Origin: a virus
IMG/VR virus record: IMGVR_UViG_3300033064_002494
Location: 1 to 26,385 of that record
Direction: 5' to 3' (one strand)
Length of the DNA stretch: 26,385 bases
Positions 5,988 to 26,385 of the stretch are shown here, one piece after another. The position numbers and the translations under genes were made by a program. How positions within the stretch are numbered: position 1 is the first letter of the stretch; each line of letters opens with the position of its first letter. The notes below the pieces were generated by a model. It saw nothing but the letters and a program-made list of their open reading frames with translations, made no database searches and had not been told where the DNA came from.

Positions 5988-6842
5988 ATGGCATGGTTAG
6001 AAGATAAAGACATTAAAAAAGGCGATAAAGTTAAACCGAAACAAGAAGTTCTATACAGTGATGGCGATGTTAGAAATTGGTTAAATGAGAAGCCACAATC
6101 TGAAAGTAAAATATGTTGCATGTTATACGGTTCAGACGGTGTTGGAAAAACTGGAATTGCACTTGATTATCTAAATGACGATGATATTAAAGCAGGACAT
6201 AAAATGGTAATAATCGATCTTGATGGGGGAAACCTACCATTGTTAAAAACATATCATAAAGATAAACTTGACAATTTAAAGTGTATAAATCCACTTGTAA
6301 CCAAAGAAACAGATAACGGAACTGAAATTGATTACGTTAGAACCTACGCAAAAATTCGTGCTACCATACGATATGTTAAAAATAACTATCAAACTGAAAA
6401 AATTAAAGCTATTGTGTTTGATGGATTGTCAACTGCACTTAAAGTTGCAGAACATCGTATGAGATTAGAAAAGAACATTGATGCTGATGGTGGAATACAA
6501 ACACGGTTTTGGTTAATACGTAACAAATTATTTTTAGAAACACTTGAAATGATAAAGACCATACCAATTGCACGATTTTTTGTTGCACATGAAGATTTTA
6601 TTCCAAACGAGCGTAATGCATCAGATTTAAGCAGTGTCAAAGCAAAAACAAATCAGATGTCATTTCAAAAACTTAAATGTAAACGTGAATGTTATGATGA
6701 ACAAACAAAGTTTATTGTTGTAGTTGACAAAAACAAATATGATGTTTGCACTGAAGGAAAAGAAATAACATTTTGTAAAGTTGACAGTAAGAAAGGCGAA
6801 GTTAAATGGAACACAAAAAAGATATTTGAAATGTTAGCATGA
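5988..6842 (+). CDS. Sak4/RecA-like P-loop ATPase
   Basis: In 284 residues it shows Walker A GSDGVGKT (about 48-55), VIIDLDGG (about 74-81) and the Walker B-like strand AIVFDG (about 141-146). This arrangement belongs to short RecA-core ATPases of the phage Sak4 (AAA_24) type. Such proteins promote single-strand annealing and recombination-dependent replication with a cognate SSB, which here is the gene three bases upstream. It is shorter than cellular RadA and lacks the N-terminal HhH domain. The distal part (about 210-284) is basic and strand-rich and not recognised. Confidence 0.75.
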   Translation: MAWLEDKDIKKGDKVKPKQEVLYSDGDVRNWLNEKPQSESKICCMLYGSDGVGKTGIALDYLNDDDIKAGHKMVIIDLDGGNLPLLKTYHKDKLDNLKCINPLVTKETDNGTEIDYVRTYAKIRATIRYVKNNYQTEKIKAIVFDGLSTALKVAEHRMRLEKNIDADGGIQTRFWLIRNKLFLETLEMIKTIPIARFFVAHEDFIPNERNASDLSSVKAKTNQMSFQKLKCKRECYDEQTKFIVVVDKNKYDVCTEGKEITFCKVDSKKGEVKWNTKKIFEMLA

Positions 6843-6848
6843 TTATAT

Positions 6849-6906
6849 AAGGTGAGTTAGGGTGTGATGAGTTTAGGTATGCAAAGGTTAGGTATGGTAA
6901 GGTTAT
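6849..6906 (+). repeat. GG-rich period-5 degenerate array I
   Basis: From 6851 to 6905 the sequence splits into eleven five-base units, every one starting with G and seven with GG (GGTGA, GGTGT, GGTAT, GGTTA, GGTAA and so on). There is no perfect unit repeat. The array lies between the Sak4-like gene and the SD of the next gene. Its start (AAGGTGAGTTAG) and end (GGTAAGGTTAT) recur in the array at 26222. GG spaced by three bases is the pattern of a two-tetrad G-quadruplex on this strand. Confidence 0.75.
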
Positions 6907-6934
6907 AATTTAAAAAATAATGGAGGAAAATAAA

Positions 6935-7228
6935 ATGAATGAAGTATTAACAGAAAAAGAAGATGTAACATATATAAAATACTACACACAAAGTTTTTTT
7001 ATACGGTTAGGTGAAGAAAGTTTAGATAAGCTTAAAGAAAAAGTTGATGGAATGACAGACGTAAAACGTAACTTATACATTGACGAGTTTGTAAAAACGC
7101 GAATGCGTAAAGTTCCAGACATGGCGGTAAATGGTGAAGATTATGATAACAGTGCTGTATCGTTAGGTGTTGCATTATTTGGCATACCAGACACTGTACA
7201 GAAAACGTTGGGAGACAAAGAAAAATGA
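6935..7228 (+). CDS. Unknown protein co-transcribed with PCNA
   Basis: The start is set at ATG 6935 (MNEVLTEKED) because GGAGG at 6922-6926 lies eight bases before it, and the earlier in-frame ATG at 6920 would sit across that SD. The 97-residue product has a probable coiled or helical segment (LGEESLDKLKEKVDGM) and no cysteines. Its TGA overlaps the PCNA ATG by four bases, implying coupled translation and perhaps a role linked to the clamp. The message leader would contain the GG-rich array. No family was recognised. Confidence 0.65.
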   Translation: MNEVLTEKEDVTYIKYYTQSFFIRLGEESLDKLKEKVDGMTDVKRNLYIDEFVKTRMRKVPDMAVNGEDYDNSAVSLGVALFGIPDTVQKTLGDKEK

Positions 7229-7935
7229 AAATTAAAGCAAAAAAACTATATGAATTTATAAAAAAAGTAACTATAAACGGCATGATACCAGAGTTCGTTT
7301 TTAAGTTAGATGTAGACGGAGCAAAGTGTATGTTGATTGATCCAACTAACATTACACTTGCACAAGGATCACTGAAAAACTCAGCATTCAGTGAATATGG
7401 TGTAACTGAAACTGTAGCATTACCTATCAAAGATACAGTGCGATTAATGAACGAAATTGCACTGTTTGATGATGAAATTACATTAACAATTACCAAAGAT
7501 ACACTGGTAATGTCAGACACACAAAAAGTTGTTACAGTTAAACTTGGAGAAGAAGAGTACATAGAAACTAAACTTGAAAAACTTCCAGAATTTGTTGAAA
7601 AGTTTGACGGTGGATTTGAAATTAACAGTGACATTTTAAAAAATACAGTTAAATACTCTACAGTATTAAAAGAAACTAAAGTTCAATTAAGTGTAAAAGA
7701 TAAAGAACTTCACATGAATGTAGGTAACAAAAGTTTTGATGTTATCACTGAAAAGGTTAATGTTGATTATCACGATGCACTTAGCAATTACGGAGATTGC
7801 TTCTTTAAAATTGTTACTAACTTGGACGGAAAAGTAATGGTATCAATGCAGGATAACTTTCCAATACAGTTTAAAGAAGTGACTGACGAGTATAGTATAA
7901 GGTTGTTCCTTGCACCATTGGAGGTAAACAACTAA
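7225..7935 (+). CDS. PCNA-like sliding clamp
   Basis: This 236-residue protein has the size and strand pattern of an archaeal PCNA, which forms a trimeric ring that tethers polymerase to DNA. Recognisable parts are an N-terminal MKIKAKKLYEFIKKV, a central hydrophobic linker (about 110-125, EYIETKLEKLPEF) and the closing PIQFKEV...SIRLFLAPLE, matching the usual last strands of the clamp that end in LAP. The family is diverged here. The RFC small subunit gene 0.6 kb downstream supports the call. It starts in an ATGA overlap with the previous gene. Confidence 0.85.
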   Translation: MKIKAKKLYEFIKKVTINGMIPEFVFKLDVDGAKCMLIDPTNITLAQGSLKNSAFSEYGVTETVALPIKDTVRLMNEIALFDDEITLTITKDTLVMSDTQKVVTVKLGEEEYIETKLEKLPEFVEKFDGGFEINSDILKNTVKYSTVLKETKVQLSVKDKELHMNVGNKSFDVITEKVNVDYHDALSNYGDCFFKIVTNLDGKVMVSMQDNFPIQFKEVTDEYSIRLFLAPLEVNN

Positions 7936-10423: not shown

Positions 10424-10557
10424 GGTTTTGGATAATATTAGGAATAGTAATTGTACTAACATCACCATTTTTATTTATTTTGTTAGTGATAATATTAGCA
10501 GGTATCATACATTTAATTGATAAATTTTTAAGTTTGTTTCAATGGAGGAAAAAATGA
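10414..10557 (+). CDS. Small membrane protein, 47 residues
   Basis: A short frame starts at ATG 10414 behind AGGGGCT (about 10401-10407). The product is almost wholly hydrophobic from residue 3 to 35, broken by Ser-Pro at 17-18. That gives one long or two short membrane helices, followed by a basic tail ending WRKK. Its TGA overlaps the ATG of the next gene at 10554. It could be a holin-like or other membrane protein of the virus. Function is not established. Confidence 0.55.
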   Translation: MGIGFWIILGIVIVLTSPFLFILLVIILAGIIHLIDKFLSLFQWRKK

Positions 10558-11567
10558 AGAAAGTAAAGAAAAATAAATGTTTAATATGTAAAAAACCAGC
10601 TACAAATAAATTTTGTTCAAATAAATGTGTTGGTATTTTTAATACTGGTGAAAATAATCCAGCAAAAAGAGAAGATGTCAGAAAAAAAATATCTAAAAAC
10701 CTTATAGGTAAAAATAAAGGTAGAATTCCATGGAATAAAGGTGTATCACGATCAATAGAAACAATAAATAAGATTAAAAAAAAATTGAAAGGTTTTAAAC
10801 ATACAAAAGAAACAAAAGAAAAAATGAGTATTAATAGCGGTTATAGATATACTTCAATTGGAAAAAAACGTGACCCACAAATATTTAAAAGAATAAGTGA
10901 AACAAAGCGAAAAAGAAGATATGAATATCACAAACATCACATTGATAACAATAATACAAATAATAAGAAAGAAAACATTTTAAAAGTTACAAATGATTTT
11001 CATAATAGAATACACAATTCTGCATATAAATATATTATTGAACATAGATTATTAGAAAAATATTTTGATTGGTTTAAAGAAAAATTTAAAGTTAAATTTG
11101 ATGTTGATAATGATGGATATAAAAGACTTATTAATAAAAAATTTATTACAGTTTGCGTATCTGGTTATTTTGATCCAGTGCACAATGGTCACACTCGTCT
11201 CTTTAATAATGCTAAAAACATTGGTAATAAATTAATAGTGATACTTAATAATGATCACCAAGCAAAATTAAAAAAAGGTTATTCGTTTATGAATCAAATA
11301 AAAAGAAAAGAAGTTTTAAAATCTTTCAGAGATGTAGATGAAGTTATAATTAGTTATGATAAAGATGAAACAGTTTGTAAAACACTTAAAAAAATAAAAC
11401 CAACGATTTTTGCTAATGGTGGTGATAGAAAAGCAGATAACATTCCCGAATATAAACTGTGTGAAGAATTAGGTATTGAAATGAAATTTAATATTGGAAA
11501 AGGTGGTAAAATAGCAAGTAGCAGTGAAATGGTGGAGAAATCAAAAAAACATGAGAAAAGATCATAA
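10554..11567 (+). CDS. HNH/NUMOD endonuclease-like domain fused to HldE-like nucleotidyltransferase
   Basis: The start is ATG 10554, eight or so bases after SD GGAGG (10544-10548). From the N-terminus (337 residues) there is a zinc knuckle CLICKK...FCSNKC (about 9-25), then NUMOD-type repeats (NPAKREDVRKKIS, IPWNKG, HTKETKEKMS; about 35-95), then an HNH-like core with YHKHHIDNNNTNN and HNRIHN (about 125-155). The C-terminal half (about 196-337) is a cytidylyltransferase fold: VSGYFDPVHNGH (HxGH, 210-213), ANGGDR (about 287-292) and KIASSSEMV, all as in HldE/RfaE-C heptose-phosphate adenylyltransferase. The first half resembles homing nucleases and the second sugar-nucleotide enzymes. The frame reads through without interruption. 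Confidence 0.7.
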   Translation: MKKVKKNKCLICKKPATNKFCSNKCVGIFNTGENNPAKREDVRKKISKNLIGKNKGRIPWNKGVSRSIETINKIKKKLKGFKHTKETKEKMSINSGYRYTSIGKKRDPQIFKRISETKRKRRYEYHKHHIDNNNTNNKKENILKVTNDFHNRIHNSAYKYIIEHRLLEKYFDWFKEKFKVKFDVDNDGYKRLINKKFITVCVSGYFDPVHNGHTRLFNNAKNIGNKLIVILNNDHQAKLKKGYSFMNQIKRKEVLKSFRDVDEVIISYDKDETVCKTLKKIKPTIFANGGDRKADNIPEYKLCEELGIEMKFNIGKGGKIASSSEMVEKSKKHEKRS

Positions 11568-11682
11568 ATGTAGATTGTGCAGAAGACAGCTTAAATCTGA
11601 AAGTAGTATACGAAATGGATTTGGTGCAATTTGTATGAAAAAGATAATGAAAAATAAAAAATTGGAGGATTTTGAAAAATGA
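11551..11682 (+). CDS. DUF6011-like mini zinc-binding protein, 43 residues
   Basis: This short frame begins at ATG 11551 inside the end of the fusion gene and stops in an ATGA overlap with queD. It reads CRLCRRQLKSESSIRNGFGAIC (positions 7-28), split as CRLC, LKSESS, GFGAIC. This matches the CxxCgRpLkdpeS...G.GpvC pattern of small phage proteins of the DUF6011 type, with three cysteines in register. Function of the family is unknown. The overlaps on both sides suggest it is translated with the cassette. Confidence 0.55.
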   Translation: MRKDHKCRLCRRQLKSESSIRNGFGAICMKKIMKNKKLEDFEK

Positions 11683-12044
11683 AAACACTATTATTACACA
11701 CAGAAACAGTAATTGATTCATGTCACCATTTAGAAGGTTATAATGGTAAATGTTCAAATAAACATGGACATTCATGGAAACTTGAAGTTTGGTTTAAAGG
11801 GACACCAATATTAAAAGATGATGTTGGCATATTGGTAGATTTTGGTATTATTAAAGACATTAAAGAAAAGTTGGATCATAAAGATTTAAATGAAGTGTTA
11901 AACTTTAATCCAACTGCAGAAAATTTGTCTGAATGGATATATAATTTTATTAAAAAAAAAGTTGCAAAAGATATTGAAATTAAAATTAGGTTATACGAAA
12001 CTTATGTTGGTAAAAAAACATGGTGTGAATGGGGTGATTGGTAA
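11679..12044 (+). CDS. queD: 6-carboxy-5,6,7,8-tetrahydropterin synthase
   Basis: QueD converts dihydroneopterin triphosphate, the FolE product, to 6-carboxytetrahydropterin, the second step toward preQ0. The 121-residue length is normal. Zinc histidines are visible at 16/17, 29 and 31 (SCHHL, KHGH), the catalytic cysteine of the C-x3-HGH motif at 25, DFG at 54-56, LDHKDLNE (65-72), NPTAENL (77-83) and a closing YET. The Cys spacing supports QueD rather than a pterin-only synthase. It starts in an ATGA overlap and is followed one base later by queE, so queD-queE-folE-queC form one operon. Confidence 0.93.
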   Translation: MKTLLLHTETVIDSCHHLEGYNGKCSNKHGHSWKLEVWFKGTPILKDDVGILVDFGIIKDIKEKLDHKDLNEVLNFNPTAENLSEWIYNFIKKKVAKDIEIKIRLYETYVGKKTWCEWGDW

Positions 12045-12045
12045 A

Positions 12046-12651
12046 ATGAAAACTATTAAAGTAAATGAAGTGTTCCAATCAATTCAGGGAGAAGGAAGAT
12101 ATGCGGGATATCCATGTCTATTCATACGTTTAAGTGGGTGTACACGACAGTGCAGTTTCTGTGATACTGATCATGAAAACTATAATGAGATAACAACAAA
12201 AAAACTTATTAATATTATAGAAAAATCAAAAAAGAACATTATAGTTTTTACTGGAGGTGAACCACTATTACAATTTGACATGATACGAGAAATTCAAAAA
12301 TTTGGACCAGAAAATGTAAAGTATCATCTTGAAACAAACGGAGATTTATTAGATCCAGGACATCTTTTATTTTTTAATTATATTTGTATATCACCTAAAG
12401 ACTTGAAAACAATTAAAAAAATAGATTTAGTATATCCTAAATATATTAGTTTGGATATTAAAGTTGTAACTGATTTAAAACTTAATAAAAAATTAATACC
12501 ATATGCTACAATGCTAATGCCATTGACAACATTTGATACTAAAAAAGATAAAAAGATTAAACAAGACGTATGGAACTATTGTTCTAAAAACAATACTAAA
12601 TTTTGTTTAAGACAACATATTGAAGTTTGGGATAAAAAGAAAGGAGTGTAA
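12046..12651 (+). CDS. queE: 7-carboxy-7-deazaguanine synthase (radical SAM)
   Basis: QueE rearranges 6-carboxytetrahydropterin to 7-carboxy-7-deazaguanine. From ATG 12046 (SD GGTGATT at 12033-12039) the 201-residue protein shows EVFQSIQGEG (8-17), the radical-SAM cluster C32-x3-C36-x2-C39 and TGGEPLLQ (69-76), all standard for QueE. An upstream in-frame ATG at 11962 would only overlap queD in another frame and lacks an SD, so it is not used. The enzyme uses a 4Fe-4S cluster and S-adenosylmethionine in the cytoplasm. Confidence 0.93.
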   Translation: MKTIKVNEVFQSIQGEGRYAGYPCLFIRLSGCTRQCSFCDTDHENYNEITTKKLINIIEKSKKNIIVFTGGEPLLQFDMIREIQKFGPENVKYHLETNGDLLDPGHLLFFNYICISPKDLKTIKKIDLVYPKYISLDIKVVTDLKLNKKLIPYATMLMPLTTFDTKKDKKIKQDVWNYCSKNNTKFCLRQHIEVWDKKKGV

Positions 12652-12654
12652 AAA

Positions 12655-13257
12655 ATGGAAAACGGTAAACAACATGATAAAGAAATGGAAAATAGTATAA
12701 AAATGATGTTAGAACATATAGGAGAAAATCCAAATAGGGACGGTTTGATTGACACTCCACAACGCGTAGTAAAAATGTGGAAAGAAATTTTTAGAGGTTA
12801 CGATCTTCACCAAAAACCAAACATAACTACATTTAATAATGGTAGTGATGGAATAATTTATGACCAGATGATATGTGATGAAGGAACATTTCACAGTCAC
12901 TGTGAACATCATATTGTGCCATTTTTTGGACATTATTACTTTTCGTATATTCCTTCACCCAAAGGTAAATTATTAGGATTAAGTAAAGTTGCACGAGTTG
13001 TAGATTATTATTCGGCAAAATTACAAGTGCAAGAACGGTTAGTTAAAGAAATTGTTGAATGTTTATGGGATGAATTAAGTAAAGATGATATTGAACCGTT
13101 AGGTATGGCATTAGTTATGAAAGCTGAACATTTATGTAAAACTATGCGGGGAGTTAAAAAGAAAGGTTTAATGACATCGTCAATAATGAAAGGTGTATTT
13201 ATGGATAAACCAGAAGTTAGAGCAGAATTTATGAATATGATAAACAGGGGGCAATAA
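12655..13257 (+). CDS. folE: GTP cyclohydrolase I (type IA)
   Basis: FolE opens GTP to dihydroneopterin triphosphate and feeds QueD. The 200-residue protein shows GLIDTPQRVVKMW (about 30-42), the zinc site C83-E-H-H86 in HSHCEHHIVPF, LGLSKVARVVD (about 107-117), LQVQERL (about 123-129), and EHLCKTMRGV (158-167), where C161 is the third zinc ligand. This is the bacterial/eukaryotic type I enzyme; archaea usually use the unrelated MptA type, so the element brings its own entry step. The SD is within AAAGGAGTG just upstream. Confidence 0.95.
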   Translation: MENGKQHDKEMENSIKMMLEHIGENPNRDGLIDTPQRVVKMWKEIFRGYDLHQKPNITTFNNGSDGIIYDQMICDEGTFHSHCEHHIVPFFGHYYFSYIPSPKGKLLGLSKVARVVDYYSAKLQVQERLVKEIVECLWDELSKDDIEPLGMALVMKAEHLCKTMRGVKKKGLMTSSIMKGVFMDKPEVRAEFMNMINRGQ

Positions 13258-13259
13258 AA

Positions 13260-13925
13260 ATGAAAGAAAAAGCTGTAATTATTTTGAGTGGCGGATTAGA
13301 TTCTACTACACTTTTGTATGATATAAAAAAACAAGGTTATGAAACATATGCATTAAGTTTTGATTATAATCAAAAACACAAAAAAGAATTAGAATGTGCA
13401 ACCCAAACATGTGAAAAGTTGAACATACCACATAAAATATTAGATTTAAGTATATTAAATGATATAGCACCTTCAGCTTTAACAAGAGCTGATTGGAAAG
13501 TGCCAGAAGGACATTACGCTGATGAAAACATGAAACAAACAGTTGTGCCTAATAGGAACATGATAATGTTAAGTTTGGCTGCGGCGTATTGTATAGGAAT
13601 CAAAGCCAAAAAATTATTTTATGGGGCACACAGTGGCGATCATGACATATACCCGGATTGTCGTAAAGTGTTTATTAATGCTATACAAACTGTGTTACAG
13701 TTATGTGATTGGAACGAAGTTCATTTAGAAGCACCATACTGGAACATAGATAAAGAAGGTATTATTTTACGTGGAGAATTACTTAAAGTGGATTATTCAA
13801 AAACATGGACATGTTATGTTGGTGAAGAAAAAGCATGTGGTAAATGCGGATCATGCGTAGAAAGGTTAGAAGCATTTGAAAAGGCAAACGTTAAAGATCC
13901 AATAAAATATATAGGAGGTAACTAA
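13260..13925 (+). CDS. queC: 7-cyano-7-deazaguanine (preQ0) synthase
   Basis: QueC uses ATP and ammonia to convert 7-carboxy-7-deazaguanine to preQ0. The 221-residue protein has the PP-loop motif SGGLDST (10-16), FDYNQKHKKEL, VVPNRNMIMLS, YGAHSGDHDIYPDCR, and a C-terminal zinc site CYVGEEKACGKCGSC, the normal QueC pattern. It starts two bases after the folE stop. No QueF (reduction to preQ1) and no GAT-QueC/ArcS gene is seen in the window, so preQ0 is the expected end product. Confidence 0.95.
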   Translation: MKEKAVIILSGGLDSTTLLYDIKKQGYETYALSFDYNQKHKKELECATQTCEKLNIPHKILDLSILNDIAPSALTRADWKVPEGHYADENMKQTVVPNRNMIMLSLAAAYCIGIKAKKLFYGAHSGDHDIYPDCRKVFINAIQTVLQLCDWNEVHLEAPYWNIDKEGIILRGELLKVDYSKTWTCYVGEEKACGKCGSCVERLEAFEKANVKDPIKYIGGN

Positions 13926-13926
13926 A

Positions 13927-14046
13927 ATGAAAATAGTATGTAGTATATGTAAAAAAACAGTTATGGCAAGTAAAGATAGATATAACAAAATAAAAGAAAA
14001 AGGAATGCTTGATAATTACAAGTGTAGAGAATGTAGAAAAAAATGA
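13927..14046 (+). CDS. Mini zinc-finger protein, 39 residues
   Basis: A short frame at ATG 13927, one base after the queC stop, has AGGAGGTAAC (about 13914-13923) as a strong SD. It encodes CSIC (5-8) and CREC (33-36) separated by a basic helix-like stretch, a four-cysteine zinc site. Its TGA overlaps the DUF6884 gene by four bases. It belongs to the preQ0 operon by position. Function is unknown. Confidence 0.55.
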   Translation: MKIVCSICKKTVMASKDRYNKIKEKGMLDNYKCRECRKK

Positions 14047-14471
14047 AAGTAGCATTAATTAGTTGTAGTAAACTAAAAAACAAAGGACTGTATCAAGTTA
14101 AAGATTTATATTGTAGTCCTTTGTTCAAAAAAAGTTTTAGTTATGCAATAAAAAACTTCGACGATGTATATATTTTATCAGCAAAGTATGGTTTATTAAA
14201 TAAAAAAACTGAAATAAGAGATTATAATATGACACTAAATGATATGAAAAAAGAACAAATAATAGAATGGAGTAAGAACATTGCAAACCAAATAAATCAA
14301 ACGTTTAACAAAACTGATAAAATATATATTATTGCCGGAAAAAAATATTATGAAGAACTACTAAAATATTTAGACGTACCATATGAAATCGTATTTGAAA
14401 ATTTATCAATTGGTAAAAAAATGCAGATTTTAAATGAAAATATAAAATATAAAACAATATTAAAATGCTGA
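14043..14471 (+). CDS. DUF6884-family protein
   Basis: The 142-residue protein begins VALISCSKLKNKG (3-15), followed by DLYCSPLFKKS (about 21-31), YILSAKYGLL (about 43-52) and YNMTLNDM. This is the conserved core of DUF6884 proteins: a Cys-Ser-Lys start, the LY-SPLF motif and the ILSAKYGL strand. The family occurs near phage DNA-modification and transglycosylase genes. Here it stands directly between preQ0 synthesis and the DpdA-like gene, which supports a role in base insertion or base tailoring. Its reaction is not known to me. Confidence 0.65.
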   Translation: MKVALISCSKLKNKGLYQVKDLYCSPLFKKSFSYAIKNFDDVYILSAKYGLLNKKTEIRDYNMTLNDMKKEQIIEWSKNIANQINQTFNKTDKIYIIAGKKYYEELLKYLDVPYEIVFENLSIGKKMQILNENIKYKTILKC

Positions 14472-14513
14472 ATATAAATTATATTCCAGTAGCATTAATA
14501 GGGGGCACTTAAC

Positions 14514-15686
14514 ATGAACAATACAAATTATATACCATCAAATTGTCCAAGTCAAATGATGAGAAACTCTGAATATATACCAGTTGCTTCAATGGGGGAA
14601 TTATCAAGAAGTAAATCAGAAGTAACAAATGATTCAATAAACAATGTTAAAAAATTATCATGGTGGGAACCAAACTCATTTTTTAATTATCCAAGTATGT
14701 TAGTTTCTGCATATTACGGAATTAAATATAAAAATAATTTTCGTAAACATTTTAATATACCAGATGATATGTTGATTATTGGAGATTCTGGTGGATTTCA
14801 AAATTTAACTTTAAATGCTAATCTTGATCCTATTGAAGTTTTGCGTTGGCAAGAACAAAATTGTCAAATTGGATTTATTTTTGATATACCAATATCATTT
14901 TGTAAGACTAAAAAAGAAATTAAAGAATGCCAAATAAAAACAGTAGAAAATGCATATATTGCTTTAAAGAAACGAGTAAATAATAAATTAAAATTGTATT
15001 GTGTGTTTCACGGTAAAAACCCTAAAAATTTAAAAGAACATATAGATATATATAATGAACATGGAAATATAAATGATTTTGATGGTTTTGCATTAGGAAG
15101 CATGGTTGCTTTTAAATCGAATTATAATTATGTAACAAAACAACTTGTAACTATTTGTGAAATAAATAAAGAATATAAAAAACCCATACATATTCTTGGT
15201 TTGTCAGGTTTAAAAATAATTCCTATAATATATTATTTATCTAAAAAATATAATCAAATTATAACATATGATAGTTCAAGTTATGGCTGTGGAGCAATCC
15301 GAAAAGAATATTGGTTAGACTATGGAAGATTTAGTATAGAGTTTTCTGATAAAAATCAAACTACAATAAATAAATTACCGTGTGACTGTCCAATTTGTTC
15401 TTTATGCACACCAGAAACCCTTAAAGAATCTGGTTCAATAAGTGGCGGATTAATATCGTTACATAACTTACACCAAACTATGTCATACTGCAATTTAATA
15501 GATATTTTGATTGAAGATGAAAATTTATTTTTTAGTTATTTAAAACAACATGTAGGTTTAAATATTTATGATATTATATCTAAAATTAAAAAGATGTTTG
15601 ATGAAAATGATTTTAGGATAGATAAATATTTTTCATCCGATAACGAAATAAATAACACTACACAATCGAACATATTTGGATTTTAG
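14514..15686 (+). CDS. dpdA: DpdA-like DNA-guanine transglycosylase (Tgt superfamily)
   Basis: The enzyme is expected to exchange guanine in DNA for a 7-deazaguanine base. In 390 residues it keeps the Tgt signatures: DSGGFQ (91-96) with the catalytic Asp91, FDIP (123-126), a GFALGS strand (191-196) like the GGLA/GALG motif, TYDSSSYG (251-258) in the place of the nucleophile loop, and the zinc site C290-x-C292-x2-C295 with His317 in SLHNLH. It lacks the tRNA-binding PUA domain of archaeal Tgt. Location after queDE-folE-queC and DUF6884 makes a DNA substrate much more likely than tRNA. The SD GGGGGC (about 14502-14507) supports the start. Confidence 0.85.
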   Translation: MNNTNYIPSNCPSQMMRNSEYIPVASMGELSRSKSEVTNDSINNVKKLSWWEPNSFFNYPSMLVSAYYGIKYKNNFRKHFNIPDDMLIIGDSGGFQNLTLNANLDPIEVLRWQEQNCQIGFIFDIPISFCKTKKEIKECQIKTVENAYIALKKRVNNKLKLYCVFHGKNPKNLKEHIDIYNEHGNINDFDGFALGSMVAFKSNYNYVTKQLVTICEINKEYKKPIHILGLSGLKIIPIIYYLSKKYNQIITYDSSSYGCGAIRKEYWLDYGRFSIEFSDKNQTTINKLPCDCPICSLCTPETLKESGSISGGLISLHNLHQTMSYCNLIDILIEDENLFFSYLKQHVGLNIYDIISKIKKMFDENDFRIDKYFSSDNEINNTTQSNIFGF

Positions 15687-15696
15687 TTATTATCAA

Positions 15697-15786
15697 ATGA
15701 TAACACTCGAACAAAAAGGGGCAAAGGATATAGTATCAAAAATATTTAAACAAATGTTTAAAAATAAGGAGGAAATTATAAAATGA
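15697..15786 (+). pseudogene. Duplicated 5' fragment of the polB gene, 29-codon chimeric frame
   Basis: Positions 15697-15735 repeat the first 39 bases of the DNA polymerase gene (18131-18169) with 37 matches. The two differences are third-position changes in codons 3 and 4 (ACA/ACT, CTC/CTA), so all 13 encoded residues, MITLEQKGAKDIV, are identical. The frame then runs into unrelated sequence and stops at 15784-15786, overlapping the ATG of the IbrB-like gene. It looks like a relict of polB left when the IbrB/IbrA cassette was inserted. The short product is probably not functional, though its stop couples to ibrB. Confidence 0.8.
15745..15762. repeat. Inverted repeat between polB fragment and ibrB
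   Basis: TTTAAAC at 15745-15751 and GTTTAAA at 15756-15762 form perfect 7-bp arms around a 4-base spacer. The pair sits ten bases after the end of the polB duplication and just before the AAGGAGG SD of the IbrB-like gene. It could be an operator, a TATA-containing promoter element or an insertion-edge relic. Confidence 0.5.
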
Positions 15787-16916
15787 GTTTGAATGAAATA
15801 AATGTATTAATTGAAAAAATAGAAAAAATAGAAAACATTAATGATAAAATAGAATTTATTAATATAGTTAAAAAAAAATTACATAAAATAAGTCCATTTA
15901 AAAATGAACCAGTGGATTGTGTAATATGGGTAAAACAAGAAAAAGTACAAGCCAATGATTATAATCCTAATAAAGTTGCACCGCCAGAAATGGAATTATT
16001 AAAATTAAGTGTTCTTGCAGATGGTTATACTCAACCCATTGTTACATTTCCAGAAGAACATCAAATAACAGTTATTGATGGATTTCATAGAACTAGAGTT
16101 GGTAAAGAAATAAATGAAATAAAAAATAAAGTATATGGATATTTACCAATTGTTCAAATACGAAAATCTCAAATTAATAAAAATGATAGAATCGCATCTA
16201 CAATAAGACATAATCGTGCAAGAGGTAAACACACAATAGATGGTATGAGCGAAATTGTTATTGAATTAAAAAGACGTAATTGGAGTAATAAAAGAATATG
16301 TAAAGAACTTGGTATGGAAGATGATGAAGTTTTAAGATTATGTCAAATAACTGGATTGGCAGAATTATTTAATGATGAAGAATTTAGTAAATCATGGGAC
16401 ATAAAAGATTCAGTGCCAGATTTTGAACCAATAACTGACGACTTTGATGATACAGTAAAAAAAGAATTTGGTTTTAGAACAGTTAATACCAGTGATGAAC
16501 AAAGAATATTTCATAAATATAATAAATGGGAATGTTATAAAGCTGGATTTTATGCTACACATAAAAAAGATATGACACAAGAACAATGTGAAGAAAAATA
16601 TAAAGAATTATTGATCAATGAAAAAGAATTTAGAGATGCATTACAAAATATAATTAATAATTGGAAATATTCATGCGAACATTATTTGACAAACCAAAGT
16701 ATGAATCGCATTGCATATTTAGGACAAGCAGCAGTGTGTTATAAATATGGTATTCCAAGTAAATATAAAAGCGGATTTAATTTATTAACTGAAATAGAAC
16801 AAGACATAGCAAATAATATTGCATTGGAATTTTTAAATAAATGGTTAATGCAAAATGGCAGGGAAAAAGTTGAGTTAAAAGATGCAATGACTACACGACA
16901 ATCAACAATATATTAA
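15783..16916 (+). CDS. IbrB-like ParB-fold protein
   Basis: The 377-residue protein has an N-terminal ParB/Srx-type domain: VQANDYNPNKVAPPEMELL (about 55-73), DGYTQPIVTFP, VIDGFHRTRVG (about 97-107) and RHNRARGKH (142-150), followed by a helix-turn-helix-like EIVIELKRRNWSNKRICKELGM. This is the layout of IbrB proteins, the partners of IbrA PAPS-reductase-like proteins, and IbrA follows here after one base. The C-terminal 170 residues are helical and not recognised. Plasmid segregation is unlikely because there is no ParA. In phages ParB-fold and PP-loop pairs have been suspected in DNA modification; that is inference here. The SD AAGGAGG is strong. Confidence 0.8.
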   Translation: MSLNEINVLIEKIEKIENINDKIEFINIVKKKLHKISPFKNEPVDCVIWVKQEKVQANDYNPNKVAPPEMELLKLSVLADGYTQPIVTFPEEHQITVIDGFHRTRVGKEINEIKNKVYGYLPIVQIRKSQINKNDRIASTIRHNRARGKHTIDGMSEIVIELKRRNWSNKRICKELGMEDDEVLRLCQITGLAELFNDEEFSKSWDIKDSVPDFEPITDDFDDTVKKEFGFRTVNTSDEQRIFHKYNKWECYKAGFYATHKKDMTQEQCEEKYKELLINEKEFRDALQNIINNWKYSCEHYLTNQSMNRIAYLGQAAVCYKYGIPSKYKSGFNLLTEIEQDIANNIALEFLNKWLMQNGREKVELKDAMTTRQSTIY

Positions 16917-16917
16917 A

Positions 16918-18120
16918 ATGCAAGTTAAAAAATATCAAAAACAGAATGTTTTGGATGCCGCAAAAGATAGAATTGGTAAAACATTTGATGATTTTGAAAA
17001 AATATATGTTAGTTTTTCAGGTGGAAAAGATAGTACAATTATGTTACATTTGGTTATGGATGAAGCAATTAAAAGAAAACGAAAAGTTGGAGTTTTGATT
17101 ATAGATTTAGAAGCACAATATCAAGATACAATAAAACACATTTATGAAATTATTAAAATGTATAAAAACAATATGGATTTATATTGGTGTTGTTTACCGT
17201 TATTAATGCGTAATGCTGTAACTAATTTTGAACCAAGATGGGTATGTTGGGATCCAAATAAAAAAGATATTTGGGTTAGACAAAAACCTAAATGCGCAAA
17301 AACCACATATGATTTTGATTTTTTTATTCCAGAAATGGAGTTTGAAGAATTTATGGTATTATTTGGTAAATGGTATGGTAAGGGAAAATTGACAGCAGCA
17401 TTTATTGGAATAAGAGCAGATGAAAGTTTACATAGATATTGTGCAATTGCAACATGGAATAAAAAAGATAAAGCACATAAAAATTATATATGGACAACAA
17501 AAATCATTGATAATGTTTATAATATTTATCCAATATATGATTGGAAAACAGAAGATGATTGGATATATCATGCAAAATTTAAAGATAAACCATATAATGA
17601 AATATACACAAAAATGTATAAAGCAGGAGTTAAATTGAGTCAACAACGATTATGTCAACCATATGGTGATGACCAAAAAAAAGGATTATGGTTATATCAT
17701 ATTTTAGAACCAGATACATGGTGTAAATTAATAGTGCGTGTTAATGGTGTTAATTCCGGCGCATTATATATAAAAGAAAGTGGAAATATGACTGGATATA
17801 ATAAAATTACATTACCAAAAGAACATACTTGGAGAAGTTTTTGTAATTTATTACTAAAAACAATGCCAAAAAAAACCAGAGAACATTATAGTTATAGATT
17901 CAAAAAATTTATTAGTAGTTGGCATGATAGAGGATATCAGGTTATACCAGAAACAGCACCACCAGAATTGGAAGCACAATGTTGGGCTCCATCATGGAGA
18001 AGAATGTGTAAATGTCTTTTAAGAAATGATTATTGGTGTAAAGGATTGGGTCAAGCACAACCAAAAAGTGAAGCATGGTTAAAATTTAAAGAACTTAAAA
18101 AAGCAAAAAAAATAACATAA
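16918..18120 (+). CDS. IbrA-like PAPS-reductase/PP-loop ATPase (DUF3440)
   Basis: In 400 residues it shows the PP-loop SFSGGKDST (32-40), VLIIDLEAQY (about 59-68), and GIRADESLHR (164-173), characteristic of PAPS reductase-like enzymes of the IbrA/DUF3440 group. An aromatic-rich middle with YPIYDWKTEDDWIY follows, then a Cys- and Trp-rich C-terminus (CWAPSWRRMCKCLL). Such enzymes adenylate a substrate through ATP; DndC of the DNA phosphorothioation system is a relative in the same superfamily. The natural substrate of IbrA is not known to me. It is strongly TTA/AGA-leaning compared with polB, and sits inside the bracketed insertion. Confidence 0.8.
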   Translation: MQVKKYQKQNVLDAAKDRIGKTFDDFEKIYVSFSGGKDSTIMLHLVMDEAIKRKRKVGVLIIDLEAQYQDTIKHIYEIIKMYKNNMDLYWCCLPLLMRNAVTNFEPRWVCWDPNKKDIWVRQKPKCAKTTYDFDFFIPEMEFEEFMVLFGKWYGKGKLTAAFIGIRADESLHRYCAIATWNKKDKAHKNYIWTTKIIDNVYNIYPIYDWKTEDDWIYHAKFKDKPYNEIYTKMYKAGVKLSQQRLCQPYGDDQKKGLWLYHILEPDTWCKLIVRVNGVNSGALYIKESGNMTGYNKITLPKEHTWRSFCNLLLKTMPKKTREHYSYRFKKFISSWHDRGYQVIPETAPPELEAQCWAPSWRRMCKCLLRNDYWCKGLGQAQPKSEAWLKFKELKKAKKIT

Positions 18121-18130
18121 TAATTATAAA

Positions 18131-20338
18131 ATGATAACTCTAGAACAAAAAGGGGCAAAGGATATAGTAATATATTATAGAACAAGTGATAACGTTCGTA
18201 AGGAGCTTGTAATTACTAACTTTAATCCTTATTTTTACGTGAAAGGTGACGGTGAATATAAATCCTTTATGGGAGAAAAACTCAAGAAAATCGAGGTTAA
18301 TGCGCCTAAAAATCTCATATATGAACGTAAAAAGTATACTAAAACGTATGAAGCTGACATACAGTATCTTAATAGATACCTTATTAACAGAATTGAAACT
18401 CCAATACCTAAATCTAAGCTTAGAGTTCATTATACTGACATTGAAACTAACATGTCAGTTGACATTGAACGAACACCAGAACCTATAATATCAATTACAG
18501 TGTATGATAATTATATTAATAAGTATGTTATATTTGTATGGCGTGATGATATCGAATCTAAACTTGACAAAACGGATGAACAATCTATATACTATTTTAA
18601 CAACGAACATGATATGCTTAACAAATATATAGATTTTGTTGAATCGACTAATCCTGACATTTTGACTGCATGGAACGCGCCATTTGACTTTGCGTACATA
18701 ATCAACAGATCTAAAAAGCTTAAATTGAACATAAACAAAACATCGCCACTTAACTATGTAAGTTTTGATAAAAAGTATGAGGATGTTACAGTTAAAGGTC
18801 GTGTGGTATTTGATCTTTTAAAAGCGTATAAAAAACTTCAACCATCAGTGATTGAATCGTATCGGCTTGATAATGTATGTGCAAAAGAGCTTGGAAGTAA
18901 AAAGATTAAAGTTGATCTGAAAACTATATGGAATGATATTGATTTGTTAATAAAATATAATAAACGTGATGTTGAACTGATAGTTAAACTTGAAGAAAAG
19001 CTGAAACTGATTGAATACTTTGACGAAATACGTCGTACAGTTGGATGTGTGTGGGATTCTGTATGGTTCAACTCAAATCTGATTGATGTGATGGTTCTAC
19101 GTGAAGCTAAACATCAAGGATTCGTTTTACCATCTAAAAATTATGTTACTGGTGATAAGTTTCAGGGTGCATATGTAAAAAAGCCAGTGCCGGGAATACA
19201 TGATAATGTGATTTGTCTTGATCTGAAATCGTTATATCCATCGTTAATGTGCCAATTTTGTATCAGTAACGAGAATTTGTCTGATGATGGTGAAATACAG
19301 TTACCGAATGGTGTTAAACTGAAAAATCGTGAAGGGTTTCTTAACGGTATTATAATTAAACTGTGGGCTGAACGTAAAAAATATAAAAAACTTATGTTTG
19401 ATGCACGGCGTAATAAAGATGATAACATGGAAAAGGTGTATGATCTCAAACAAGTATCGTATAAGTTTCTTGTGAATTCGTTGTGGGGGTATCTAGGATA
19501 TCAAAAAAGTAGGTTGTATAAGCGTGAACTTGCAAGTAGCATTACACTTATGGCACGAGAAACTATCATGCACTCTGCAAAAGTTATTGAATCATTAGGA
19601 TACGAAGTTATTGCTGGTGATACTGATTCTATTTATATTAAAATTCCGCATAGTGATAAAAATAAGATAATTGAAACAGGTAATAAACTTAAAGCACACC
19701 TTAACAAAAGTTATACTGAGTTTGTGAAAAAGTATGGGTGCAAAGAAAACAAGTATCTAGAAATGGAATTTGAAAAGATCAATTCTAAAATGTTTTTCAG
19801 TGATGCTAAAAAACGGTATGTGTATCGTTGCATTTGGGCTGATGGTATTGACGTTGATAAGATAAGTTACATTGGATGGGATACTCGTCGAAGTGATCGT
19901 TCTCACATACAAAAAAAAGTGCAACAAGACATATTTGAAATGTTGTTACTCAAAGATTCAACAAAGAAAGATGTTGATAGTTACGTTAAAAAAGTTAAAG
20001 AACGGATAAAATGTGGCGATATTCCACTGCATGACATTGTAATACCACAAACTATAACTAAAGACATAAGCAAATATAAAAATATGCCTGCACATGTTCG
20101 TGGAATGATATGGTCAAATAAAAATCTTAATCTGCCAATTGACATAAAGATTAGAATGTTATGGATCACAGATCATCGAACTGATGTTGTGTGTGTTCCT
20201 GAAGGACAAGTTCACATCCTTGAACAGTTTAAAATAGATTATGATAAAATGTTTAGTCTTATATTTGACAATACACTTGAAAAAATATATGATACGTTAC
20301 ATTGGAACCAACAAGAGGTGAGTTTGCTTGAATTTTAA
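18131..20338 (+). CDS. polB: Family B DNA polymerase
   Basis: This is the replicative polymerase with 3'-5' proofreading. Exonuclease motifs are DIE (103-105), NAPFD (182-186) and YNKRD (276-280). Polymerase motifs are GAYV before DLKSLYPS (A, 364-371), NSLWG (B, 449-453), DTDS (C, 497-500) and the later KKRY. At 735 residues it is compact relative to cellular PolB (about 770-900), which fits viral polymerases. Motif B has Trp where NSxYG enzymes have Tyr. No SD precedes the ATG, while a 39-base copy of its start lies 2.4 kb upstream. It is CTT- and CGT-rich, unlike the cassette just before it. Confidence 0.96.
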   Translation: MITLEQKGAKDIVIYYRTSDNVRKELVITNFNPYFYVKGDGEYKSFMGEKLKKIEVNAPKNLIYERKKYTKTYEADIQYLNRYLINRIETPIPKSKLRVHYTDIETNMSVDIERTPEPIISITVYDNYINKYVIFVWRDDIESKLDKTDEQSIYYFNNEHDMLNKYIDFVESTNPDILTAWNAPFDFAYIINRSKKLKLNINKTSPLNYVSFDKKYEDVTVKGRVVFDLLKAYKKLQPSVIESYRLDNVCAKELGSKKIKVDLKTIWNDIDLLIKYNKRDVELIVKLEEKLKLIEYFDEIRRTVGCVWDSVWFNSNLIDVMVLREAKHQGFVLPSKNYVTGDKFQGAYVKKPVPGIHDNVICLDLKSLYPSLMCQFCISNENLSDDGEIQLPNGVKLKNREGFLNGIIIKLWAERKKYKKLMFDARRNKDDNMEKVYDLKQVSYKFLVNSLWGYLGYQKSRLYKRELASSITLMARETIMHSAKVIESLGYEVIAGDTDSIYIKIPHSDKNKIIETGNKLKAHLNKSYTEFVKKYGCKENKYLEMEFEKINSKMFFSDAKKRYVYRCIWADGIDVDKISYIGWDTRRSDRSHIQKKVQQDIFEMLLLKDSTKKDVDSYVKKVKERIKCGDIPLHDIVIPQTITKDISKYKNMPAHVRGMIWSNKNLNLPIDIKIRMLWITDHRTDVVCVPEGQVHILEQFKIDYDKMFSLIFDNTLEKIYDTLHWNQQEVSLLEF

Positions 20339-20579
20339 AGACAATTATAAAAATATTAAAAAGGAAACAGACGTGCTTTTTAATAAAGTTAAAGATCATA
20401 AGTTGTTAGTTGGCAGGCCACCATCAAAAATACTAATGTCGTGTGAGTTCATTGTTCGTAAAAATATTGGACAAGAAATACCGTATGTTGACTTCGAACG
20501 TCACTGTGGAATTGTTAGAGAAACACTTAAACGTAATTTAGAAGTTATAGAGGAGATACTAAAAAATGAGGCTGAGTAA
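20328..20579 (+). CDS. TFB-like single cyclin-repeat protein
   Basis: The gene starts with TTG at 20328, chosen because GAGGTGA at 20315-20321 is an excellent SD six bases upstream and no nearby ATG exists. The 83-residue protein reads GRPPSKILMSCEFIVRKNIGQEIPYVDFE then HCGIVRETLKRNLEVI at about 29-73. That is the order of motifs in a TFIIB/TFB cyclin repeat: G-RxP, an Ala-rich helix, Q-type helix, then GV-x-TLRN. Only one repeat is present and the zinc ribbon is missing. It might modulate host transcription or be a DNA-binding domain reused in replication. It overlaps both polB and the Cas4-like gene. Confidence 0.5.
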   Translation: MNFKDNYKNIKKETDVLFNKVKDHKLLVGRPPSKILMSCEFIVRKNIGQEIPYVDFERHCGIVRETLKRNLEVIEEILKNEAE

Positions 20580-21240
20580 AAGTTCAATACTTGCATACGA
20601 ACATTGTCCGTATTCGTTTTATCTTAGTAAGATTAAGAAGGCAAAAATACCGGATGAAGAAATGCCAGTGCAACTTGTAAAGGGGACTGAAGTTCATGAA
20701 ATGTTAGATGATTTCTATAAACCTAAAACGGATGATATTGCTAAACTTGAAATGGAAATTAAAAAGCATAAAAATTATCATAAGCATGAAACAGAGATTA
20801 ACAATTTCATTAATCTAAATCGTAGAATATCAAAGAAAACTAAAAAGTTTAAACCGTTATTCAGAGAAGTTAAAGTTGAAGATAAAGATATTAACATTCT
20901 TGGATTCATAGACTGTGTGCATTTTGATGGTAAAAATAAAGCTATCATAGATTATAAAACAGGAAGAGAAAAATCCATAACACCGTTCAGGTTCGAACTT
21001 GCACTGTACACGTACATGTTCGAAAAAGAATTCAATCAAAAGATTACACACTGGGGACTATACTTTGTAAGTCATGATAAGTTTAAAGTTGAACAAAAAA
21101 ATGTAGATGAAATGAAAAAAGCAGTTAAAAAAGTTCAAGATGTCAGAAAACTTATACACGAAAAAAAGTTTGATAAGTGTCCTGGATATCTATGTAAATG
21201 GTGCAAGTATTATATGATACATTGTAATGGGAGGAAATGA
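20566..21240 (+). CDS. Cas4/RecB-like Fe-S exonuclease
   Basis: The 224-residue protein is a PD-(D/E)XK nuclease. It has LSKSSILAYEHCPYSFYL (3-20) with Cys14, His44 in GTEVHE, the core GFID116 then IIDYKTG (D129, K131), E144-LALYTY, and C-terminal cysteines at 205, 210, 213 and 220 (CPGYLCKWC...C). Cys14 plus the last three fit the four ligands of the Fe-S cluster in Cas4/AddB nucleases. Such proteins resect DNA ends and are common in archaeal viruses without any CRISPR array. It lies between polymerase and Hjc, so recombination or end processing is likely. Confidence 0.88.
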   Translation: MRLSKSSILAYEHCPYSFYLSKIKKAKIPDEEMPVQLVKGTEVHEMLDDFYKPKTDDIAKLEMEIKKHKNYHKHETEINNFINLNRRISKKTKKFKPLFREVKVEDKDINILGFIDCVHFDGKNKAIIDYKTGREKSITPFRFELALYTYMFEKEFNQKITHWGLYFVSHDKFKVEQKNVDEMKKAVKKVQDVRKLIHEKKFDKCPGYLCKWCKYYMIHCNGRK

Positions 21241-21242
21241 AA

Positions 21243-21467
21243 ATGTGCAAAAATAGATTATGTGGAGATTTGCCAGATGGATTATATAAAAAATGTTTGA
21301 ATGAAGATGGTTCATTTTCACATTTAATTGGCAATTTACAATGGTGCGGATTATCACATGAAGATGGTTTAAGCCAAACAGATTTGAATAGATGCCCATA
21401 CCTAACTAAAAATATCAGTACAAATTATAAGGGTGTGGTAAGATATCGGTGTACATATGGCAATTAA
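21243..21467 (+). CDS. Small Cys-rich protein of unknown function
   Basis: I chose ATG 21243 rather than 21237, because GGGAGG (21229-21234) is then eight bases away instead of two. The 74-residue protein has six cysteines (CKNRLC near the start, then singly spaced Cys in KKC, QWC, NRC and YRC), which could form a metal site or disulfides. It has no signal peptide. The final residues overlap the Hjc start by 11 bases. No family was recognised. Confidence 0.55.
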   Translation: MCKNRLCGDLPDGLYKKCLNEDGSFSHLIGNLQWCGLSHEDGLSQTDLNRCPYLTKNISTNYKGVVRYRCTYGN

Positions 21468-21891
21468 ACATACTAAAGCCAAAGGTACAGCAGCAGAACG
21501 TGAACTGTTGAAAATGTTATGGAATAACGGATATGGTGCACTGCGGTGTCCTGGAAGTGGATCAACACCATTACCATCACCAGACATATTAACTTGCATT
21601 CATAACACTTACGTTGCAATTGAAGTTAAAGTTACACAAGGAAAAATACAATATTTTCGGAAAGAACAAATAGATGAACTTCAAGATTTTGCAGAGAAAT
21701 TTAATGCAATTCCAGCTGTAGCTGTGAAGTTTTATCGTAAAGGGTGGATATTCATGTTAGTGGATGACCTCACAAAAACTAAAGGTAATAATTATGTCAT
21801 GAAATATCCTAACAAGAAACAACAGTGTATAACAAATAATAGAAAATATATGGAATTTGAAGATTTTATATATTATGCACAATTAGAATGA
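21457..21891 (+). CDS. Archaeal Holliday junction resolvase (Hjc-like)
   Basis: Hjc cuts four-way DNA junctions symmetrically. The 144-residue protein shows AKGTAAERELLKML (8-21) with Glu14, ALRCPGSGS (28-36), PDI (42-44, Asp43) and AIEVKVTQ (54-61, E56-x-K58), the PD-(D/E)XK residues of the family in the right order. It continues with FRKEQIDELQDFAEKF and a Trp-containing strand. The size is typical of Hjc. It is followed in ATGA overlap by the primase. The role would be to resolve replication or recombination intermediates before packaging. Confidence 0.9.
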   Translation: MAIKHTKAKGTAAERELLKMLWNNGYGALRCPGSGSTPLPSPDILTCIHNTYVAIEVKVTQGKIQYFRKEQIDELQDFAEKFNAIPAVAVKFYRKGWIFMLVDDLTKTKGNNYVMKYPNKKQQCITNNRKYMEFEDFIYYAQLE

Positions 21892-22871: not shown

Positions 22872-22910
22872 AAATATATTTTTATGTAACATTGCATTTG
22901 TTAAACTGCT

Positions 22911-22940
22911 GTATATAGCCGAATTACGCCGTATATAGCC
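22911..22940. repeat. Direct repeat GTATATAGCC, candidate operator
   Basis: GTATATAGCC occurs at 22911-22920 and again at 22931-22940, exactly 20 bases apart, about two helical turns. Each copy is preceded by a C/G-rich CTGCT or ACGCC. The pair lies just upstream of the TATA element at 22951, where archaeal repressors or activators bind. Confidence 0.55.
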
Positions 22941-22950
22941 AAACCGAAAG

Positions 22951-23006
22951 GTATATATATATATTCGCCTAAGTTATTATAGAAATAATAATAATAATAA
23001 TTTCGT
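22951..23006 (+). promoter_or_regulatory. TATA promoter and TAA-repeat leader of the small-gene operon
   Basis: GTATATATATATATT at 22951-22965 is a strong TATA-like element. Initiation would fall near 22980-22990, at the start of an AAT/TAA triplet run ending TTTCG (about 22986-23004). The GGAGGTG SD at 23014-23020 then serves the ATG at 23029. The same arrangement of TATA box, TAA run, TTCG and SD is found before 4678. Confidence 0.6.
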
Positions 23007-23028
23007 AAACATTTGGAGGTGTTTTGAA

Positions 23029-23241
23029 ATGGAAAATAAAACAATAAAAATGCAAATAACATTTGCCGATGACGTGTCACTTGATGATGCTAATGAACTT
23101 GGTAAGGTGGTTCAGGAAAGGTTTGGTCATATTATTAAAGACTTAAAATTTCCTATTTTTTCTTCTTTTAATACAATAGACGCAACTGATGATTTGGTAT
23201 CAGAAAAGATTAAGTTTGATTGTGAAATGGAGGGTTGTTAA
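23029..23241 (+). CDS. Unknown acidic protein, 70 residues
   Basis: This is the first gene of the downstream operon, with an excellent SD. The sequence has a strand-like KTIKMQITFADDVS start, a helix with DDANELGKVVQERFG, and a second strand region ending KIKFDCEMEGC. The alternation suggests a small alpha/beta fold. No family was recognised. Confidence 0.65.
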   Translation: MENKTIKMQITFADDVSLDDANELGKVVQERFGHIIKDLKFPIFSSFNTIDATDDLVSEKIKFDCEMEGC

Positions 23242-23242
23242 A

Positions 23243-23910: not shown

Positions 23911-23911
23911 A

Positions 23912-26221: not shown

Positions 26222-26295
26222 GGTTAGGTCCGGTTTGGTGAGGCTTGGCACGGTTTGGTAAGGTGAGTTAGGTGTGGTCCGGTTGGGTAAGGTTA
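26222..26295 (+). repeat. GG-rich period-5 degenerate array II
   Basis: GG recurs every five bases at 26222, 26227, 26232 and so on through 26262 (nine units), then after a one-base slip again at 26271-26291 (five units). Units are of the type GGTNN or GGNNN, with variable last bases. AAGGTGAGTTA at 26260 and GGTAAGGTTAT at 26286 are shared with array I. The 44 bases before it (26178-26221) hold an SD-like GAGGTGAGG without an ATG behind it. Confidence 0.8.
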
Positions 26296-26320
26296 TTTTA
26301 TAACCTTATTTTTATATTTA
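26289..26320. terminator. Hairpin with T-rich flank, possible terminator or array junction
   Basis: AAGGTTA (26289-26295) and TAACCTT (26301-26307) pair as a 7-bp stem over a five-base loop, followed by an A/T-rich stretch with a T5 run. It could end the small-gene operon. It also marks the break between arrays II and III, so it may instead be a structural element of the arrays. Confidence 0.4.
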
Positions 26321-26326
26321 TAGTTC

Positions 26327-26385
26327 GGTTTGGCACGGTTCGGTAGGATCAGGTATGGTCTGGTCAGGTTGGGTTTGGTAAGGCA
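26327..26385 (+). repeat. GG-rich period-5 degenerate array III (continues past the window)
   Basis: GG occurs at 26327, 26332, 26337, 26342, then (after a 4+6 split) at 26352, 26357, 26362, 26367, 26372, 26377 and 26382. Eleven of twelve GG pairs keep the five-base register to the end of the window, so the array is cut off. GGTTT, GGCAC and GGTAA units also occur in array II. Confidence 0.8.

What the first reader, a model, noticed from the sequence alone, without database searches (positions are those of the whole stretch)
6849..6906. A shorter copy of the GG-pentamer array inside the replication operon
Array I lies 19 kb from arrays II/III yet shares AAGGTGAGTTAG(G)GTGTG at its start and GGTAAGGTTAT at its end. 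The two are therefore related, not chance. It stands in the leader of the unknown/PCNA gene pair, so the RNA would carry GGU pentamers just before the SD at 6922. This could act as an RNA switch on clamp expression or as a dispersed cis element of the genome.
Basis: partly seen in the sequence, partly recalled or inferred. Interest (0 to 1): 0.7.

Follow-up and report, generated by a model that had tools for sequence, protein, structure and literature searches.

The report
Lone VIPR guide-RNA-like array in leader
A short stretch of five-letter repeats in front of a virus's replication genes looks like a guide RNA of the recently described VIPR system, a relative of CRISPR that viruses use against other mobile elements, here standing alone far from its partners.

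Summary
At 6851-6905, 11 pentamers run in unbroken 5-nt phase (7 of 11 start GG, 11 of 11 start G). They score 34.2 bits on a GGY-NN matrix; 40 shuffles reach at most 0.3 and 529 kb of control virus DNA at most 8.1. Arrays II (26222-26295) and III (26327-26385, cut by the contig end) are of the same kind. The kind is already described: vrRNAs, the GGY/NN guide RNAs of VIPR systems (preprint PMC13142463). Tested independently here, 26 of 45 IMG/VR loci fetched by the bare pattern and holding at least 100 nt of array encode a homologue of the SUSP1 phage Vipr protein, which folds like the CRISPR backbone protein Csm3/Cas7. Arrays directly ahead of a gene start, as here, are common in such loci (24 of 79); one 19 kb from vipr was seen in 1 of 20 records. 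No Vipr gene lies on this contig, and no target or useful relative was found. Array I is best read as a solitary, somewhat degenerate vrRNA in the leader of the unknown/clamp gene pair. Whether it is a working guide, a decayed one or a cis site is open. Nothing supports an RNA switch.

The parts
6851..6905 (+). Array I: 11 in-phase pentamers, vrRNA-like, ending GGTAAGGTTA
   Evidence: 34.2 bits; 7 of 11 pentamers start GG, 11 of 11 start G
6922..6926 (+). Shine-Dalgarno GGAGG of the gene after array I
   Evidence: sequence; ATG at 6935
6935..7228 (+). 97-aa protein of unknown function, first gene after array I
   Evidence: the 102-aa mechanical ORF from 6920 has no Pfam or PHROG match; fold of the 97 aa without alignment is unusable (pLDDT 45.7)
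7225..7935 (+). PCNA-like sliding clamp
   Evidence: phrog_223 E 3.4e-6; PCNA_C E 0.0052, below the Pfam cut-off
5988..6842 (+). AAA_24 / Sak4-like ATPase, gene before array I
   Evidence: E 2.1e-7; phrog_124 E 4.5e-6
26222..26295 (+). Array II: 9 pentamers, one 4-nt unit, 5 pentamers; vrRNA-like
   Evidence: (50.3 bits)
26288..26313 (+). Tail of array II: hairpin TAAGGTTAT-TTT-ATAACCTTA and T run
   Evidence: -9.6 kcal/mol, z -2.3
26327..26385 (+). Array III: at least 11 pentamers, cut by the contig end, ends GGTTTGGTAAGGCA
   Evidence: 55.9 bits; its 18-nt piece AGGTTGGGTTTGGTAAGG recurs, outside this virus, only inside other such arrays (5 of 5 records)

Best explanation
Array I is a vrRNA (the GGY/NN guide RNA of a VIPR system) or a direct derivative of one. 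It is encoded singly in the leader of the unknown-97aa/PCNA gene pair of a virus with archaeal-type replication genes, whose other known vrRNAs (arrays II and III) lie 19 kb away at the contig end. By analogy with the preprint, it would work as follows: the leader is transcribed, the small RAMP protein Vipr oligomerises on the GGY frame, and the two variable bases of each pentamer read DNA as x-NN-x-NN to repress a competing element. Shown here: the repeat code, its statistical reality, its family linkage to Vipr, the RAMP fold of a linked Vipr, and that a leader position is normal in VIPR loci. Inferred: that this virus has a vipr gene (probably just beyond 26385), that array I is transcribed and processed, and that it guides. 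Within this reading I put a still-working guide at about 0.5 and a decaying former guide at about 0.35.
For: The preprint describes exactly this repeat (PMC13142463). A matrix from 1560 pentamers of Vipr-linked arrays gives G 0.92, G 0.91, Y 0.89, then two near-random positions; array I scores 34.2 bits, next to 39.3 for the weakest SUSP1 array. Homologues of SUSP1 Vipr (L242 28474-29061) occur in 26 of 45 viral loci with at least 100 nt of array, against 1 of 55 with 40-99 nt and 2 of 20 with less. The family is phrog_4652, and the L080 member folds like Csm3 (Z 12.3, 162 aligned, rmsd 3.7; 50 of 50 rows shown are CRISPR effector chains). 24 of 79 arrays in vipr loci stand directly before an RBS and gene, 10 of them before vipr itself; with a tighter limit the gap from last GG to start codon is 12-72 nt (20 arrays), and for array I it is 34. 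In L030 an array and vipr directly follow a clamp-loader gene homologous to the window's. One of 20 records has a lone array 19.3 kb from the nearest vipr.
Against: No vipr gene in the window: best of 366 ORFs E 1.9, phrog_4652 none at E up to 1. Array I has 4 of 11 imperfect pentamers, all at the second G, where linked arrays have a median of 1 to 2. It lacks the tail hairpin of array II (0.0 kcal/mol). No target found: self-search no better than permuted NN; exact 1-nt-skip patterns of II and III gave 3 and 1 IMG/VR records, none convincing; array I was tested only on the window and on 3.8 Mb held here. No conservation test was possible.
Confidence: 0.8

Rival explanations
1. Array I is a decayed vrRNA: it once was a guide with its own tail, was left behind when the VIPR locus moved or was rearranged, and now only fills the leader. 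(This overlaps the best explanation, which covers both a working and a decaying vrRNA.)
For: 4 of 11 pentamers imperfect, no tail hairpin although it shares GGTAAGGTTAT with array II up to the hairpin loop; distant from the other arrays.
Against: No phase slip in 55 nt; first G kept in 11 of 11; all four faults are at position 2, a fault also seen in array III (GATCA) and in linked arrays; one SUSP1 array is about as imperfect (39.3 bits); a leader array without a tail hairpin exists in L067.
Confidence: 0.3
2. Array I is a cis site: Vipr binds the GGY frame in the leader of its own or another mRNA and so represses translation of the 97-aa/clamp pair, or titrates Vipr.
For: Position 34 nt before the start codon; 24 of 79 arrays in vipr loci sit in a leader, 10 before vipr itself, which would suit autoregulation.
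Against: Leader arrays are no more degenerate than others (Mann-Whitney p 0.22, 20 against 50 arrays), as if kept as guides; no regulatory structure.
Confidence: 0.1
3. A metabolite- or protein-sensing RNA switch, or a plain G-rich or G-quadruplex element unrelated to Vipr.
For: G-rich leader before the clamp genes; GG every five bases could in principle form two-tier quadruplexes (recalled, not tested).
Against: No fold beyond shuffles (z -0.04), no Rfam match, and the third-position pyrimidine plus free NN fit the vrRNA code.
Confidence: 0.05

Closest known systems
vrRNAs of VIPR systems (PMC13142463, Escherichia phage SUSP1 and P. fulva prophage)
   Same: GGY/NN pentamers, 9-16 units, variable NN, viral genome, array next to gene starts; the SUSP1 arrays score 39-64 bits on the same matrix
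   Different: Here no vipr on the contig, arrays split over 19 kb, array I lacks a structured tail and sits in a replication operon of a virus with archaeal-type genes
Solitary array in the 115-kb record IMGVR_UViG_3300005323_000039 (G012 70317-70401)
   Same: One vrRNA-like array about 19 kb from the nearest vipr; imperfect pentamers mostly at the second G
   Different: Has its own GGTT...AACC tail hairpin and is not directly before an RBS
CRISPR crRNA arrays
   Same: Guide RNA carried on a RAMP backbone; a linked Vipr folds like Csm3/Cas7
   Different: No repeat-spacer layout; information spread over two of every five bases; among the window proteins scanned no Pfam or PHROG match to a Cas protein

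Membership tests
VIPR vrRNA | 9-16 tandem YNNGG units with conserved GGY | tested here: met
   I: 11 in-phase units, 7 perfect; II: 14 pentamers and one 4-nt unit; III: at least 11, cut
VIPR vrRNA | NN positions hypervariable | tested here: met
   NN differ along and between the three arrays; within linked arrays positions 4-5 are near uniform
VIPR vrRNA | Invariable, structured 3' tail | tested here: inconclusive
   II has a hairpin tail; I shares its first 11 nt but does not fold; III is cut off; a leader array of L067 also lacks a hairpin
VIPR system | vipr gene (RAMP, about 20 kDa) near the arrays | tested here: inconclusive
   None in the window, but the contig ends inside array III, on the side where vipr could lie
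VIPR system | Encoded by a phage, archaeal virus or provirus | tested here: met
   IMG/VR virus record; PCNA-like, RFC-like, Hjc and PolB proteins; PolB hits in 282 of 294 genomes of the phylum of L179 (an archaeon), best 37-38% identity
VIPR system | DNA target read by the 1-nt skip rule | tested here: inconclusive
   No significant target in the window or in 3.8 Mb held; exact patterns of II and III gave 3 and 1 IMG/VR records, judged chance
VIPR vrRNA | Transcribed as about 100-nt RNA that copurifies with Vipr | not testable with these tools
   needs small-RNA sequencing and pull-down
Known Rfam riboswitch or leader RNA | Match to a covariance model | tested here: not met
   No match at gathering in the window nor at E up to 1 on 6800-6980 and 26150-26385

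The most novel reading that the evidence does not exclude
Array I is a guide RNA deliberately built into the leader of a replication operon, so that the virus makes a dedicated VIPR guide only when it makes its sliding clamp, or so that Vipr bound to the leader adjusts clamp output: an operon-coupled, possibly self-regulating vrRNA, which the parts of the preprint that I read do not describe.
Probability: 0.15. Interest if true: 0.75.

Novelty: new member of a known kind. Interest (0 to 1): 0.5.

Why it matters
VIPR was described only in April 2026 and is proposed as a forerunner of CRISPR. A virus with archaeal-type replication genes and guides split between a replication leader and a distant array adds a layout in which guide expression may be tied to replication. 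The bare pentamer code, scored with a matrix, finds such guides in fragments that lack the Vipr gene.

Tried and rejected
RNA switch: no fold beyond shuffles, no Rfam family. Vipr inside the window: not found by an iterated HMM over 366 ORFs nor by phrog_4652. The 97-aa ORF as a mini-Vipr: not supported; its fold without alignment is unusable, and it matched no ORF of the VIPR loci. Self-targeting: none. External targets: the array II pattern lies in 3 records, 2 of them with the same sequence and the skip base at the wobble position, but the next array units do not match (the 13-unit match is no better than permuted NN); the array III pattern lies in 1 record, in a glutaredoxin-like gene (label from reading the sequence) of a 50% GC locus with the skip base at codon position 1. 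Judged chance.

Close relatives: PCNA and ATPase probes found none in IMG/VR; PolB gave 43 loci of which only L243 is close, being an identical fragment. The array II tail motif gave 13 records, of which only L243 is an array. The 18-nt piece near the end of array III gave 5 records besides L243, all inside other VIPR-like arrays, 4 of these 5 loci with a Vipr hit; none continues this virus. In one search the tblastx comparison ran for L303 only (no hit); the files of L304-L307 were not found under the names I used.

Limits of counts: in cellular genomes the 10-pentamer pattern is not diagnostic: 4 of 120 loci had Vipr. The reversed-sequence control (56 bins) is not a clean null because reversed arrays still match; I did not use it. 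The matrix was trained on arrays chosen by GG density in Vipr loci, so it favours clean arrays; the window's arrays were not in the training set, SUSP1's were. ORFs under 80 aa were left out (30 aa for the window). Working notes that I correct here: says arrays are always on the strand of vipr, but one search shows exceptions in L003, L036 and L047; one search says 11 leader arrays precede vipr, but one search lists 10; one search says the whole main text of the preprint was read, but it was parts 1-3 of 4 and no supplement.

Full report
Observation. The sequence at 6851-6905 is a run of 11 pentamers in perfect 5-nt phase. Seven start GG and all start G. Six GG in ten pentamers was not reached by 200 dinucleotide shuffles of window 1-26200 (maximum 5) nor by 5000 shuffles of the local 77 nt. 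The only similar places in the window are 26222-26295 and 26327-26385, both on the + strand. Array I fills the 92-nt gap between the ATPase gene (5988-6842) and the 97-aa ORF (6935-7228) that precedes PCNA (7225-7935); none of the other gaps listed holds an array.

What the repeats are. A paper search then gave one preprint, PMC13142463 (outline and abstract, parts 1-3 of 4 of the main text, no supplement). It describes VIPR: a small RAMP protein, Vipr, and vrRNAs of 9-16 YNNGG repeats with conserved GGY and variable NN, which bind DNA reading x-NN-x-NN, found mostly in phages and archaeal viruses. Two further searches of the held library returned no other paper on it.

Independent test of that link. 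I took the first 50 kb of phage SUSP1 from the phage collection and found its four arrays around two small genes; the 195-aa one was used as Vipr. An iterated HMM from it, run over ORFs of at least 80 aa in the loci that the bare patterns had fetched and in SUSP1, found 35 ORFs. Vipr was present in 26 of 45 viral loci with at least 100 nt of array, 1 of 55 with 40-99 nt, 2 of 20 with less, and in 4 of 120 loci from cellular genomes. The family is phrog_4652, 'unknown function', with no Pfam match in the six members tested. The L080 member, predicted with 9 sequences (pLDDT 82.3), matches CRISPR Csm/Cmr/type VII RAMP chains (Foldseek best E 7.8e-6; Z 12.3, 162 aligned, rmsd 3.7). So the pentamer code and a RAMP protein go together in sequences I chose without using the protein.

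Array I as a member. A matrix from 1560 pentamers of Vipr-linked arrays gives 55.9, 50.3 and 34.2 bits for III, II and I, -5.9 for the next place in the window, at most 0.3 in 40 shuffles and at most 8.1 in 528,773 bases (both strands) of 42 control loci. The four SUSP1 arrays score 64.2, 59.7, 44.5 and 39.3. Array I is therefore a weak but clear member.

Position. Of 79 arrays in vipr loci (SUSP1's four included), 24 lie within 140 nt upstream of an RBS and an ORF of at least 60 aa, 10 of these ORFs being vipr. With an 80-nt limit and only the 70 arrays that span 11 pentamers, 20 are leaders, with 12-72 nt from last GG to start codon; array I has 34 nt. An archaeal genome locus, L368, also has an array directly before vipr. 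In L030 the order is clamp-loader gene, array, vipr, so a replication neighbourhood is not odd. The distance is: in 20 vipr-bearing records scanned (981,100 bases), 34 of 35 array clusters lie within 1.9 kb of a vipr ORF and one, in G012, lies 19.3 kb away. Array I resembles that exception.

What is missing. No Vipr ORF is in the window. A second record, L243, is identical to 15045-26385 and stops at the same base, inside array III, as expected if the assembly breaks in the repeats; vipr may lie just beyond, which is inference. Array II ends in a hairpin and T run (-9.6 kcal/mol, z -2.3). Array I has the same first 11 nt, GGTAAGGTTAT, and then none of the hairpin. Its four faulty pentamers all miss the second G; this is also a common fault in linked arrays, though loci differ. 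The 14-nt word shared with II beyond the constant end has permutation p 0.016: suggestive only.

Targets. At a 1-nt skip no array finds a better match in the window than its NN order permuted, nor in 3.8 Mb of held loci apart from the records fetched with the patterns themselves. Exact patterns of 9 units of II and 10 of III gave 3 and 1 IMG/VR records; context speaks for chance.

Conclusion. Array I belongs with vrRNAs of VIPR (about 0.8). Whether it is a live guide (about 0.5 within that reading), a decayed one (about 0.35) or a cis site is open. The proposed switch on clamp expression has no support. This is a new member, in an unusual place, of a kind first described in 2026.

Noticed in passing
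window 15684-15735 and 18118-18169: The first about 50 nt of the PolB gene recur, 90% identical, just before the ParB-like (label from reading the sequence)/PAPS-reductase-like gene pair, as if that pair had been inserted with a copy of the gene start.
   Followed up: no
window 10542-11567: One ORF joins a NUMOD3/homing-endonuclease-like part (weak, below cut-off) to a cytidylyltransferase domain.
   Followed up: no
window 26385 and L243 11341: Two records of the same virus end at exactly the same base inside array III, so assemblies of such viruses may break at vrRNA arrays and lose the vipr gene.
   Followed up: partly
L311 10317-10401 (record G012 70317-70401): A lone vrRNA-like array with its own GGTT...AACC tail, 19.3 kb from the nearest of two vipr ORFs in a 115-kb virus record.
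   Followed up: partly
L046 after 3718, L068 after 576, L150 before 6144: Genes directly after leader arrays start alike (...YPR...), perhaps ParB-like accessory proteins (label recalled, not tested).
   Followed up: no
control genomes: phrog_4652 (Vipr family) also matches in Thermotoga maritima and Caulobacter vibrioides at the lax threshold used (E up to 1).
   Followed up: no
window 11679-15686: Genes that look like a 7-deazaguanine pathway stand together (labels of 11679-13925 from reading the sequences, not tested); 14514-15686 matches the TGT family.
   Followed up: no
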